Shown piece by piece: positions 18,280 to 58,033 of a DNA stretch of 64,000 nt. Origin of the DNA: Halogeometricum rufum (GTDB lineage Archaea; Halobacteriota; Halobacteria; Halobacteriales; Haloferacaceae). Every line of letters starts with the position of its first letter. Positions within the stretch are counted from its first letter, which is position 1. Location of the stretch: the NCBI RefSeq assembly GCF_900112175.1, contig NZ_FOYT01000003.1, positions 186,001 through 250,000 of the forward strand, given 5' to 3'. A program made the position numbers and the translations under genes. A model generated the notes under the pieces. That model did no database searches and was not told the DNA's origin. It worked only from the letters and a program-made list of their open reading frames with translations.

Positions 18280-18468
18280 ACACCTCCGTGGTGGTGGCGC
18301 GTCCCTAACTCCACCGGTCGAACGAGTCGTTTTCGAGGAAACCGCACGTCGACGTTCGGTGTTCGAATCTCGACGGTCAGCGATCAGTCTCATCTCCGCG
18401 AGACTCGTCGGCCGGTATCGACGGCAGCCAGTCGAATCTGCAGACAGTATGTGAAACTGACAGCCTAT

Positions 18469-18488
18469 CAGACGAAACGAGGGGGGAG
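18469..18488 (+). repeat. ORB 1 (left outer)
   Basis: CAGACGAAACGAGGGGGG followed by AG; plus orientation, downstream of the cdc6 stop. Confidence 0.8.
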
Positions 18489-18515
18489 CCTGCGACGGTG
18501 GTCCGACGATGTCGT

Positions 18516-18540
18516 AACAGACGAAACGAGGGGGGAGGGT
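18516..18540 (+). repeat. ORB 2 (left inner)
   Basis: AACAGACGAAACGAGGGG core with a longer G-string; plus orientation, 47 bases from ORB 1 and running into the polypurine tract. Confidence 0.85.
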
Positions 18541-18588
18541 GAAGAGGAAGAAGAGGAAGAAGAAGAAGGAGAAGAAGGAAAGAGAGGG
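18541..18588 (-). terminator. 48-base polypurine tract after cdc6
   Basis: The plus strand is uninterrupted purine (GAAGAGGAAG-type repeats). In the cdc6 transcript this is an unbroken C/U-rich stretch directly after the stop, a plausible terminator. It could also form triplex or ease unwinding next to ORB 2. Confidence 0.5.
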
Positions 18589-18590
18589 TT

Positions 18591-19787
18591 TTACTCCCGT
18601 TCTCGTTCGATCTGTTCGCGCGCTTCGAACACGGCGTCGGTGTCGACGGAGAGTTCGTAGACGAAGTAGGAACCGCCGCGTTTACCGTCGTTGTACTCCG
18701 TCTTCGAGAGAAATCCGAGCATCTCGAGCGTTCCGAGGTGGTTCTGGATGCTCTTGAGACTCGTAAGCGGATCGTAGGCGTAGTGACCGGCGACCGTCTC
18801 GTACACGTTGCGTATCTCCTTGCTTCGAGAGGGCGTCTCGTCTTCGCTCTCCAGTCTGGCGACGGACTCTAACACGAGTTGACCGTGAATGGTCTGGTCG
18901 CGAATCTTGTTCGTCACCCGGCCCCGTCGAACCTGTTCGCGAGCGTCCTGAATGTGTTCGTCGGTCACCATGCCGTCGCCCTCCGACTCGGCGAGGTCAC
19001 CGCCGGTACGGAGAAGGTCGAGTGCCTGCCGGGCACCGCCCGTGTCCTGTGCCGCGAGTGCGGCACAGAGTTGGATCGCCGACTCGGAACACGCACCGTC
19101 ACGGAACGCCTTCTCCGCCCGTTTGTCGAGGATGGACCGAAGTTCGTTGGCGTCGTACGGACTGAACGATATCTCCTTCTCCATCAACGTGTCTCGGACC
19201 TTGGGCGAGAGTGAGTCACGGAATCGATAGTTGTTGCTGATTCCGATGACACCGACTTTCGACTCCGTGATGTGCCCGTTCGCCCTCGCGCGAGGGAACT
19301 CGTAGAGGAGTTCGTCGGCGTCGGAGAGGTGGTCTATCTCGTCGAGGACGAACAGGAACGTGCCGCCGATGTCGTCCATCTTCTCGTACAGCGTCTCGAA
19401 AGCGATGTTCGTCGACAACCCCGTCTTCGGAAACGGATCCTCGTCGTCGTCCTGGAGTTTGTTGACGAGAGTACGGACCGCCCCGTAGACGCTGCCCCGG
19501 TTACAGTTGTAGATTCGAACGTGAAGGTCGTCCGCCTCGTCCCGTTTCTCCGTCTCTTCCTCTAACGCCTGCAACATGTAGTTCGTAACCGCCGTCTTCC
19601 CGACGCCCGTCTTCCCGTAGACGAATATGTTGGAGGGATTCCGTCCGAACAACACGTCCTTGAGTGCGTCGCGGTACGCTCGAATCTCGTCGTCGCGTTC
19701 GAGGATAGTGTCGGGTTGATAGTCCTCGGATAGCACCTCCTTGTCCTCGAACAGCGTATTGTCCATGTTACTGAACGGCTGTGTCAT
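18591..19787 (-). CDS. cdc6: Orc1/Cdc6 replication initiator
   Basis: 398-residue AAA+ initiator that binds ORBs and loads the MCM helicase. Walker A GKTGVGKT at 58-65, Walker B FVLDEID with D149-E150, sensor-1 region GISNN (near 180), and a C-terminal winged helix (about 310-385) that reads the ORB. Length is normal for haloarchaeal Cdc6. The ATG at 19787 is supported by a TATA-like GTTTATGT 28-35 bases upstream on the same strand. An ATG seven codons further in is an alternative. The gene lies inside the ORB cluster, as at functional haloarchaeal origins. Confidence 0.95.
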   Translation of the reverse strand: MTQPFSNMDNTLFEDKEVLSEDYQPDTILERDDEIRAYRDALKDVLFGRNPSNIFVYGKTGVGKTAVTNYMLQALEEETEKRDEADDLHVRIYNCNRGSVYGAVRTLVNKLQDDDEDPFPKTGLSTNIAFETLYEKMDDIGGTFLFVLDEIDHLSDADELLYEFPRARANGHITESKVGVIGISNNYRFRDSLSPKVRDTLMEKEISFSPYDANELRSILDKRAEKAFRDGACSESAIQLCAALAAQDTGGARQALDLLRTGGDLAESEGDGMVTDEHIQDAREQVRRGRVTNKIRDQTIHGQLVLESVARLESEDETPSRSKEIRNVYETVAGHYAYDPLTSLKSIQNHLGTLEMLGFLSKTEYNDGKRGGSYFVYELSVDTDAVFEAREQIERERE

Positions 19788-19814
19788 CTCTTCTCGCTAC
19801 CTCACGGTCATCGC

Positions 19815-19822
19815 ACATAAAC
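19815..19822 (-). promoter_or_regulatory. TATA-like box of cdc6
   Basis: GTTTATGT on the minus strand, 28-35 bases before the cdc6 ATG. An ORB-like core without a G-string (19831-19846, minus) lies immediately upstream, so Cdc6 may bind at its own promoter. Confidence 0.5.
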
Positions 19823-19887
19823 CTAGTGTCGTGTGTTTCGTCTGTTTCGTCGTAGTCACTCGTTTCATCAGTATCCCGTTTATGCTG

Positions 19888-19940
19888 CACCCCCACCCCT
19901 CATTTCGTGAGAAAAGCGGAGCAAGAGGGGTGGGGGGAGG
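19888..19940. repeat. Inverted ORB (19888-19911) facing a G-string half box
   Basis: On the minus strand 19888-19911 reads ACGAAATGAGGGGTGGGGG after CTC, an ORB without the AACAG head. A plus-strand half box with AAGAGGGGTGGGG follows at about 19923-19935. The two G-strings point away from each other. Confidence 0.7.
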
Positions 19941-19958
19941 GTGAGAAGTCGATTTGCC

Positions 19959-20100
19959 GGTATAGTAAGATTCAAATTACGTCTCTAGACTATTCTCTAG
20001 ACACTAGTCTAGTTAGTTTAGTTAGTCTAGTTAGTTTGGTTGGTATAGGGGTTGTACTGAACCTCCGTAGACTGGTGTGAACTAGGTAAGAAAGCTAATT
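19959..20100. other. AT-rich duplex unwinding element
   Basis: About 140 bases far richer in A+T than the rest of the window, between the inverted ORB and the right ORB array. It contains a 15-base direct repeat beginning TAGTCTAGTTAG at 20005-20019 and 20023-20037, and several CTAGAC and TAGTTAGT words. Position and composition fit the unwinding element. Confidence 0.7.
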
Positions 20101-20413
20101 ACTGATGTTCGACGGCGATTATCTACGCTCGACGGAGGCTCCTCGTCGGGCGCTGTCTGTTCTTCCATCAGACCGTCCGGTGGTCGTCGTCACTTCCCGT
20201 GGTCGTACCACCTTTCCTCGTCACTACCGTCCACGTTGCTCCGACTGTTGGCTCCCTCTTGGTTCCGTCGTTGTACCCGTGTTCCTGCTCTCGTAGTTCC
20301 GGCGTCGTTCTCGCGGTTACCGCCCAATCACCGGCTTTCGTCCGCTTTCGATCCGACTTCGGAGTGGTTACAGGCGGTTCGATTCTCCCGATAGCGACCG
20401 GTCGTGACGCTGG

Positions 20414-20437
20414 AACAGACGAAATGAGGGGGGTGGG
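20414..20437 (+). repeat. ORB 3 (right array)
   Basis: AACAGACGAAATGAGGGG core and extended G-string, plus orientation. Confidence 0.85.
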
Positions 20438-20463
20438 CGCTACCTGTGAAGGGGGGGACACCA

Positions 20464-20562
20464 CCCCTCTCGTTCGCGCTAACAGACGAAAAGAGGGGTG
20501 GGGGCGTGACCGACGATGGTCCCCTCTCGTTCGCGCTAACAGACGAAATGAGGGGTGGGGGG
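20464..20562 (+). repeat. ORB 4 and ORB 5 in a 57-base tandem unit
   Basis: The unit starting CCCCTCTCGTTCGCGCT at 20464 recurs at 20521 (57-base period). Each copy carries an inverted G-string half and then a full ORB (20481-20504 and 20538-20562), so the array grew by duplication. Confidence 0.85.
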
Positions 20563-20590
20563 ATTCCGCCATCTTCGTGCCGCAGTCCGG

Positions 20591-20615
20591 AACAGACGAA
20601 ACGAGGGGGGTGGGG
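20591..20615 (+). repeat. ORB 6 (right array)
   Basis: AACAGACGAAACGAGGGG core with extended G-string, plus orientation. Confidence 0.85.
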
Positions 20616-20628
20616 AGACTCTCCGTCG

Positions 20629-20647
20629 AACAGACGAAACGGGGGGT
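20629..20647 (+). repeat. ORB 7 (right array, short)
   Basis: AACAGACGAAACGGGGGG; the A of the GAGG element is lost, so this outer copy is slightly degenerate. Confidence 0.75.
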
Positions 20648-20700
20648 CTCCTCGGACCCGAAGTAAGCACCGAGCAGCGTGTGCGCACTCGCCAGATTCG

Positions 20701-27360: not shown

Positions 27361-29022
27361 ATGCTTCACGCGAAAGGCCCGCTCCTGTCTGTCGACGTCG
27401 GGAGCAGGGAGACGAACGCCGTCACAGTTACCGACGTGCTAGAGTCGTACATCGGGGGGCGCGGCGTCGCCACCAAACTCGCGCACGACCGAATCCCGTA
27501 CGACGCCGACCCGTTCGGCCCGGAGAACCGCCTCGTCTTCACCACGGGACCGATGCAGGCGTCGAACATGAGTTTCACCGGACGGATGAACGCCACCGCC
27601 GTCTCGCCCCTGACCGACGGTCTGCTCTCCTCGAACGCCGGCGGGTTCATGTCCCGCCACTTCGCCGACACGGGGTACAGCGCCGTCGAGTTCACCGGTG
27701 CGAGCGACGAACTCCTCGTCGTCCACGTCACCGACGACGGAGTCGATTTCGAGGCCGTCCCCCACCTCGAAGGCGCGACGGTTCCGGACACCGTCGAGTA
27801 TCTCGAAACCGAACACGACATCGGACCGGACCGTACGGCCGTCGTCGGGCCGGCGGGCGAGAACGAAGTGCGCTTCGCCTCCATCATGACCTCCGAGGAA
27901 CGCGCGTTCGGCCGCGGCGGACTCGGTGCCGTCCTCGGTTCGAAGAACGTGAAGGCCGTGACGTTCGGCGGCGACTCCGCGCCCGACATCGACGTTCCGG
28001 CCGGCCAGATGGACATCCACCGCGAGGCCGCGACGGACGACCACATCATGAAAGAGCAGGGCACCGTCGCCGTGATGGACCTCGCCAACGAGGTGAACGG
28101 CTTGCCCTCGTACTACTTCTCCGAGCAGACGTTCGAGGGCGTCGAGGGCATCAACGGCGACGCCGTCGCCTCGAAGAAGTACAAGAAGGGGACCTGTTCG
28201 GCCTGCGCGTTCGCCTGCAAACTCCCCACCCGCGACGAGGAACGCGGCGTCGAGACGGAGGGCCCCGAGTTCGAGGTGGCGATGGCGTTCGGGTCGAACT
28301 CGGGCGTCGACGACATCGTCGACGTGATGAAGTCCAACCAACTCTGCGACGAGTACGGTCTCGACGCCATCTCGGCGGGCAACGTCGTCGCCTCGTACCT
28401 CGCCGCCGAGGACGAGTTCGGCAACCGCGAACTCATCTGGGACCTCGTCGAGAAGATCGCCCACCGCGAGGGCGTCGGTGACACGTTGGCCGAGGGCATC
28501 GACCGGACGCACGAGGAACTCGGCGTCGAGAACTGGACGGTGAAGGGGATGGACTTCGCGGCCCACGAGGGACGCGTCCTGCACGGGCAGGGACTGTCGT
28601 ACGCCGTCGCGAACCGCGGTGCCGACCACATGTACGCCACGTTCTACTCCGTGGAGTATCCGCTGGTGCCGCAGGAGCAAGCGGTGGACCCCGAGGGAAC
28701 GGTGGGGAAGGCGGACGTGCTGATAGAGCGAGAGAACCTGATGGCGCTGAACGACAGCGGCGTGGTCTGTAAGTTCTCGCGGGACTACATGACGCCGGAG
28801 CGCTACGAGATGCTGTTCGGCGCGGACTTCGAGGAGTTGCTGGCGGTGGGCGCGCGGACCGTGACGCTCGAACGGCACTTCAACAACCAGCGAGGGTTCG
28901 ACCGCTCGGACGACCGACTCCCGTACGAGTTGCCGGACTTCGAGGCGGCACTGGACGAGTACTACGACGCTCGCGGGTGGACCGACGACGGCGTCGTCCC
29001 CGAGGGCCACGTTCCGGCCTGA
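27361..29022 (+). CDS. aor: Aldehyde ferredoxin oxidoreductase (tungsten enzyme)
   Basis: 553-residue tungstopterin enzyme oxidising an aldehyde to an acid with ferredoxin as acceptor. The [4Fe-4S] ligands are C279, C282, C286 (CSACAFAC) and the distal C470 (SGVVCKF). The N-terminal GGRG motif (32-35) and GRGGLGAVLGSKN (184-196) match pterin-binding segments of the family. The protein is a little shorter than the roughly 600 residues of Pyrococcus AOR. It diverges from the class III aminotransferase and precedes the ectoine hydrolase homologue, so a semialdehyde is a plausible substrate (inference). Ferredoxin and tungsten-cofactor genes are not in the window. Confidence 0.92.
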   Translation: MLHAKGPLLSVDVGSRETNAVTVTDVLESYIGGRGVATKLAHDRIPYDADPFGPENRLVFTTGPMQASNMSFTGRMNATAVSPLTDGLLSSNAGGFMSRHFADTGYSAVEFTGASDELLVVHVTDDGVDFEAVPHLEGATVPDTVEYLETEHDIGPDRTAVVGPAGENEVRFASIMTSEERAFGRGGLGAVLGSKNVKAVTFGGDSAPDIDVPAGQMDIHREAATDDHIMKEQGTVAVMDLANEVNGLPSYYFSEQTFEGVEGINGDAVASKKYKKGTCSACAFACKLPTRDEERGVETEGPEFEVAMAFGSNSGVDDIVDVMKSNQLCDEYGLDAISAGNVVASYLAAEDEFGNRELIWDLVEKIAHREGVGDTLAEGIDRTHEELGVENWTVKGMDFAAHEGRVLHGQGLSYAVANRGADHMYATFYSVEYPLVPQEQAVDPEGTVGKADVLIERENLMALNDSGVVCKFSRDYMTPERYEMLFGADFEELLAVGARTVTLERHFNNQRGFDRSDDRLPYELPDFEAALDEYYDARGWTDDGVVPEGHVPA

Positions 29023-29050: not shown

Positions 29051-29070
29051 GCCCCCGCGTTTCGTCTGTC
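29051..29070 (-). repeat. Orphan ORB-like element (degenerate)
   Basis: The minus strand reads GACAGACGAAACGCGGGGGC, matching the origin boxes at 18-20.6 kb except at the first base and one base before the G-string. It lies between AOR and the ectoine hydrolase gene, about 8.5 kb from the origin. Confidence 0.5.
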
Positions 29071-58010: not shown

Positions 58011-58033
58011 AACAGACGAAACGAGGGGGGCCC
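58011..58033 (+). repeat. Orphan origin recognition box
   Basis: AACAGACGAAACGAGGGG core plus GG and CCC, identical in its first 20 bases to ORB 6 of the origin, but 37 kb away. It sits between two convergent genes (57888 and 58124). Confidence 0.8.

What the first reader, a model, noticed from the sequence alone, without database searches (positions are those of the whole stretch)
18469..20650. Well-formed replication origin with about eight G-string boxes
cdc6 plus ORB repeats on both sides and an AT-rich element with internal repeats form a complete origin. The right array has grown by a 57-base tandem duplication. An ORB-like core without a G-string lies in the cdc6 promoter, hinting at autoregulation. 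Layout matches known haloarchaeal origins; the exact box sequence allows assignment of this Cdc6 to its cognate boxes.
Basis: partly seen in the sequence, partly recalled or inferred. Interest (0 to 1): 0.68.

Follow-up and report, generated by a model that had tools for sequence, protein, structure and literature searches.

The report
Haloarchaeal megaplasmid Cdc6 replication origin
This is a well-formed DNA replication start site of a salt-loving archaeon, with its own starter-protein gene (cdc6) and that protein's binding boxes; it is a new example of a known kind, with comparative signs that the starter protein also controls its own gene.

Summary
A cdc6 gene (18591-19787, minus strand) is flanked by seven near-identical boxes, ACAGACGAAAYGAGGGG: two downstream and five upstream, all on the + strand. 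An AT-rich element (19962-20101) lies among the top 0.03% of such stretches on its contig. The "57-base tandem duplication" is a 41-base block repeated at 57-base spacing.

Related Cdc6 genes (55-76% identical) carry the same kind of boxes; Halorubrum, Halobellus, Haloquadratum and Natronocalculus share the box itself. The G-less core in the cdc6 promoter occurs, mostly just before TATA, in all 21 family loci. It changes together with the box sequence: CAGA, CTCA and CACT types each match in box and promoter (permutation p = 0.0002). This makes autoregulation by Cdc6 credible, though its sign is unknown.

The contig (369 kb, no tRNA genes, identical 95-base ends) is probably a circular megaplasmid. 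Two solitary boxes lie far from the origin, at 58012 (exact) and 29053 (one mismatch). Titration by downstream boxes has an experimental precedent in Haloarcula hispanica. Verdict: new member of a known kind. Origin activity is untested.

The parts
18591..19787 (-). cdc6 (orc1/cdc6 family initiator, 398 aa; AAA+, lid and C-terminal winged helix)
   Evidence: TIGR02928 421 bits, PF09079, PF22703; 76% identical to Halospeciosus flavus Cdc6
18468..18484 (+). ORB, downstream of cdc6 (TCAGACGAAACGAGGGG)
18517..18533 (+). ORB, downstream of cdc6 (ACAGACGAAACGAGGGG)
   Evidence: relatives also have downstream boxes
19835..19844 (-). G-less ORB core CAGACGAAAC in the cdc6 promoter, about 14 nt upstream of the TATA-like TTTATG; a second overlapping CGAAAC core abuts it at about 19844-19849
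   Evidence: present in 21 of 21 family loci and covarying with the boxes
19816..19821 (-). TATA-like element TTTATG of the cdc6 promoter; transcript nearly leaderless
   Evidence: sequence; inference
19889..19909 (-). inverted variant ORB with G-string (CTCACGAAATGAGGGGTGGGGG), cdc6 side of the AT-rich element
   Evidence: (I1, I4); same element at the same place in H. flavus L010
19890..19936 (.). perfect 12-nt G-rich inverted repeat (19890-19901 / 19925-19936)
   Evidence: I24; resembles the oriC1 enhancer of H. hispanica (PMC3936714); not conserved in L010
19962..20101 (.). AT-rich element, likely unwinding element, 64% AT, with 9-nt repeats TAGTTTAGT/TAGTCTAGT
   Evidence: top 0.03% of 140-nt windows of the 369-kb contig
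20415..20431 (+). ORB (upstream array, box 1)
20482..20498 (+). ORB (upstream array, box 2; in duplicated block 20464-20504)
20539..20555 (+). ORB (upstream array, box 3; in duplicated block 20521-20561)
20592..20608 (+). ORB (upstream array, box 4)
20630..20646 (+). ORB (upstream array, box 5, ACAGACGAAACGGGGGG)
58012..58028 (+). solitary exact ORB in a convergent intergenic gap, 37 kb from the origin; possible titration site
   Evidence: function inferred
29053..29069 (-). solitary ORB-like site (one mismatch) just after the stop codon of the + strand gene 27361-29022
   Evidence: function inferred

Best explanation
The locus is an Orc1/Cdc6-dependent replication origin of a haloarchaeal replicon, probably a circular 369-kb megaplasmid. 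Cdc6 made from the gene binds the five + strand boxes at 20415-20646 and the inverted box at 19889-19909. Together they flank the AT-rich element at 19962-20101, which is opened for helicase loading (inferred from known archaeal origins). The G-less cores between the inverted box and TATA are probably weaker Cdc6 sites through which the protein controls its own transcription (inferred from conservation and covariation; sign unknown). The two boxes downstream of cdc6, and perhaps the solitary boxes, hold back spare Cdc6 by titration, as shown experimentally for oriC2D of Haloarcula hispanica. Shown here: the gene, the boxes, the AT-rich element, box conservation with orthologous Cdc6, and covariation of boxes with promoter cores. 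Inferred: binding, opening, autoregulation and titration.
For: Boxes far above chance. cdc6 domains. AT element in the top 0.03% of the contig. The same box occurs on both sides of orthologous cdc6 in L011-L018, and family members with variant boxes sit on plasmids. The promoter core is in 21 of 21 loci; total mismatches to own box core 13 against 26.2 +/- 2.5 when labels are shuffled, p = 0.0002. Contig ends identical over 95 nt and no tRNA genes. Precedent for titration by downstream ORBs: PMC3936714.
Against: No replication, binding or transcription data. Many predicted haloarchaeal origins are weak or dormant (PMC3528665; PMC4595724). GC skew on the contig has its maximum 22 kb away and its sign is not diagnostic. 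The 95-nt end repeat also occurs once in contig C1, so circularity is probable, not proven. Covariation rests on a handful of independent changes of core type.
Confidence: 0.88

Rival explanations
1. A dormant or backup origin: the parts are intact but another initiator or origin on the same replicon normally fires, and this one is used only when the other is lost.
For: A second cdc6 lies on the same contig at C3:295049. Dormant origins with intact inverted ORBs are known in Haloferax mediterranei (PMC4595724).
Against: The second cdc6 has only one ORB-like site upstream and no box array. Boxes and promoter cores here are well preserved.
Confidence: 0.25
2. The promoter cores are not an operator but simply the innermost part of the origin (mini-ORBs needed for initiator assembly), with no effect on transcription.
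For: They lie next to the inverted box and close to the AT-rich element in the window and H. flavus. The same covariation would be expected of any Cdc6 binding site.
Against: In most of the 21 loci they sit at a near-fixed place just upstream of BRE/TATA and lack the extended 3' half that the array boxes carry. Paralogous cdc6 genes in this genome also have a box core at or near the core promoter.
Confidence: 0.35
3. The solitary boxes at 58012 and 29053 are chance matches or relics of a former array, with no function.
For: Not conserved: most related genomes have none. The distal H. flavus hits lie inside a coding sequence and are chance.
Against: The 58012 box is an exact 17-mer. All three solitary sites in the genome with at most one mismatch lie on the origin's own contig, 8.8% of the genome, and all are intergenic. 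Natronocalculus has a comparable exact box in a convergent intergenic gap.
Confidence: 0.5

Closest known systems
Haloarchaeal orc1/cdc6-adjacent origins (Wu et al. 2012, PMC3528665)
   Same: cdc6 with G-string ORBs in the flanking intergenic regions, AT-rich element, boxes sometimes on both sides of the gene, linked evolution of Cdc6 and ORB sequence
   Different: This Cdc6 is at most 76% identical to any found here, below the 80% used there to define a family; the tandem G-less cores in the promoter are not described in the parts read
oriC2-cdc6E with oriC2D of Haloarcula hispanica (PMC3936714)
   Same: Origin upstream and additional ORBs directly downstream of cdc6, where titration was shown
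   Different: Two downstream boxes here against 11 there; homology to Cdc6E was not tested; the box sequence of oriC2 was not compared
Cdc6 loci of Halorubrum, Halobellus, Haloquadratum and Natronocalculus (L011-L018)
   Same: Orthologous Cdc6 (62-66%), same box ACAGACGAAAYGAGGGG, boxes up- and downstream, promoter cores
   Different: There the downstream boxes mostly point the other way, and no inverted G-string box was found upstream
Halospeciosus flavus chromosomal locus (L010)
   Same: Closest Cdc6 (76%), same inverted box TTTCTCACGAAAT at the same place, similar AT-rich element
   Different: Array boxes (four of five exactly) and the promoter core read CTCACGAAAC instead of CAGACGAAAC; no downstream boxes found
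Bacterial DnaA autoregulation and titration (dnaA promoter boxes, datA)
   Same: Works-like comparison only: initiator boxes in the initiator's own promoter and away from the origin
   Different: Unrelated boxes and a different initiator family

Membership tests
Haloarchaeal orc1/cdc6-adjacent replication origin | cdc6 gene over 300 aa with AAA+ and winged-helix domains | tested here: met
   398 aa; TIGR02928, PF22703, PF09079
Haloarchaeal orc1/cdc6-adjacent replication origin | Repeated ORBs with G-string in the intergenic regions next to cdc6 | tested here: met
   Seven canonical boxes and one inverted variant
Haloarchaeal orc1/cdc6-adjacent replication origin | AT-rich element flanked by inverted ORBs | tested here: met
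   19962-20101 between the inverted box 19889-19909(-) and boxes 20415-20646(+)
Haloarchaeal orc1/cdc6-adjacent replication origin | Autonomous replication or marker-frequency peak | not testable with these tools
   needs experiment or read depth
oriC1, the chromosomal origin conserved in all haloarchaea | oriC1-type Cdc6 and oriC1-type ORB | tested here: inconclusive
   The protein falls below the cut-offs of all four PRK00411 NCBIfam models (best 278.7 against 501 bits), and its box differs from those of the own paralogs; no oriC1 reference sequence was aligned
oriC2-cdc6E/oriC2D-type titrated origin | ORB cluster directly downstream of cdc6 | tested here: met
   Boxes at 18468 and 18517
oriC2-cdc6E/oriC2D-type titrated origin | Cdc6 orthologous to Cdc6E, and loss of titration raises initiation | not tested
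   Cdc6E sequence not compared; phenotype needs experiment

The most novel reading that the evidence does not exclude
Members of this Cdc6 family keep a dedicated operator of G-less ORB cores, often in tandem, in front of their own TATA box, and some replicons add solitary boxes far from the origin. Together these would make a DnaA-like homeostasis of initiator level (autoregulation plus replicon-wide titration), for which no archaeal report was found in the held library.
Probability: 0.3. Interest if true: 0.62.

Novelty: new member of a known kind. Interest (0 to 1): 0.4.

Why it matters
The origin itself is expected in a haloarchaeon. The useful part is comparative: box and promoter core change together in natural Cdc6 relatives. 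That gives a ready set of Cdc6/box pairs for testing initiator specificity and whether archaeal initiators control their own synthesis.

Tried and rejected
Distal boxes as a general rule: rejected. In H. flavus the three distal hits are one coding sequence present in three contig places; in H. alkaliphilum the hit on contig 45 looks like a displaced downstream box; most Halorubrum/Halobellus genomes have no extra exact box. GC skew as proof of the origin: inconclusive; the skew is significantly bipartite (p = 0.001) but its maximum is 22 kb from the origin. A first tree and promoter table with some loci in the wrong orientation were redone with those loci turned round. No paper found in the held library describes ORB cores in a haloarchaeal cdc6 promoter; subscription journals are not held.

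Full report
Check. The window is positions 186001-250000 of contig C3 (369,313 bp) of a 4.19-Mb, seven-contig haloarchaeal genome. The cdc6 gene at 18591-19787 (minus strand) encodes a 398-aa Orc1/Cdc6 protein with lid and C-terminal winged-helix domains. Its nearest solved relatives are archaeal Orc1/Cdc6 proteins, such as 2qby and 2v1u. The box ACAGACGAAACGAGGGG with up to 3 mismatches occurs nine times in the window against 0.42 expected. Genome-wide with up to 2 mismatches there are 15 hits against 0 for the reversed control. Seven boxes make up the origin: two downstream of cdc6 (18468, 18517) and five upstream (20415, 20482, 20539, 20592, 20630), all on the + strand.

Between cdc6 and the AT-rich element lies an inverted box with a G-string, CTCACGAAATGAGGGGTGGGGG (19889-19909, minus strand). 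It is conserved at the same place in Halospeciosus flavus (TTTCTCACGAAATCGGGGGTGGG). With it, the layout is the usual one: inverted boxes on either side of an AT-rich element. That element (19962-20101, 64% AT) is in the top 0.03% of 140-nt windows on the contig, whose mean is 34% AT. One arm of a perfect 12-nt G-rich inverted repeat overlaps the inverted box, recalling the oriC1 enhancer of Haloarcula hispanica (PMC3936714); it was not seen in H. flavus.

Relatives. A scan of one genome for each of 84,980 species found nine close relatives of this Cdc6. Those in Halorubrum, Halobellus, Haloquadratum and Natronocalculus (62-66% identical) carry the same box both upstream and downstream of cdc6. 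The nearest, H. flavus (76%), has five array boxes, four of them exactly of the CTCACGAAAC type. More distant members (55-67%) include large plasmids of Halocatena, Haladaptatus, Halorussus and Haloferax mediterranei. In these and in L043-L048 the 3' half of the box usually reads GTACTCTC or similar instead of a G-string. The protein tree pairs the window with H. flavus at full support. By the 80%-identity rule of PMC3528665 no family mate was found here.

Promoter cores. In the window, CAGACGAAAC without a G-string lies about 14 nt upstream of the TATA-like TTTATG. Equivalent cores, often in tandem at 9-nt spacing, lie upstream of cdc6 in all 21 family loci, allowing up to two mismatches to the local box core, mostly just upstream of TATA. 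They follow the local box type: CAGA cores with CAGA boxes, CTCA with CTCA (H. flavus), CACT with CACT (L124, L125). Total mismatches between promoter and own box core are 13, against 26.2 +/- 2.5 when labels are shuffled (p = 0.0002). The loci are related, so this p is optimistic, and there are only a few independent changes; one locus (L011) fits another type slightly better than its own. Paralogous cdc6 genes in the same genome also have a box core at or near their promoter. Autoregulation is therefore the leading reading, but the cores could be just the inner part of the origin. A position upstream of TATA does not tell activation from repression. An archaeal precedent for an Orc1-type protein acting on its own promoter is Orc1-2 of Saccharolobus islandicus (PMC9738581).

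Replicon. C3 has identical 95-nt ends and no tRNA genes. The same 95-mer also occurs once inside C1, which C1 reads through, so a circular megaplasmid is probable but not proven. The other cdc6 on C3 (at 295049) has a single ORB-like site and no array. GC skew is bipartite (p = 0.001) with its maximum 22 kb from the origin, which is weak evidence.

Solitary boxes. An exact box lies at 58012 in a convergent intergenic gap, and a one-mismatch box at 29053 just after a gene. A third one-mismatch site is at C3:2321, also intergenic. All three solitary genome hits with at most one mismatch are on this contig. Natronocalculus has a comparable exact box in a convergent gap, but most relatives have none. 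Titration is possible; chance or relic is not excluded.

Conclusion. This is a new member of the haloarchaeal Cdc6/ORB origins. Downstream boxes that limit initiation are experimentally known in H. hispanica (PMC3936714). Activity, binding and regulation at this locus remain to be tested.

Noticed in passing
L043-L048, L122-L126 (flanks of cdc6): Sister Cdc6 loci carry repeated boxes whose 3' half is GTACTCTC or similar instead of a G-string; L013, L015 and L046 mix both kinds. Origin prediction based on G-strings would miss these.
   Followed up: partly
G000:C3:295049-296218 (L004), outside the window: A second cdc6 on the same contig, with one ORB-like site (ACAGGTGAAACGAGGGGAGGGGG) at 294893 but no box array.
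   Followed up: partly
18534-18590: Almost pure purine run (+ strand) between the downstream boxes and the end of cdc6; on the coding strand it is a pyrimidine tract, possibly a transcription terminator.
   Followed up: no
L133 (Haloquadratum J07HQW2 contig, about 1.968 Mb): A second pair of exact boxes 3 kb apart; the sequence beside them matches only fragments of Cdc6, suggesting a decayed copy of the same origin.
   Followed up: partly
G000:C3:1-95 and 369219-369313: Identical contig ends, also found once at C1:886310: circular megaplasmid signature through a short repeat.
   Followed up: partly
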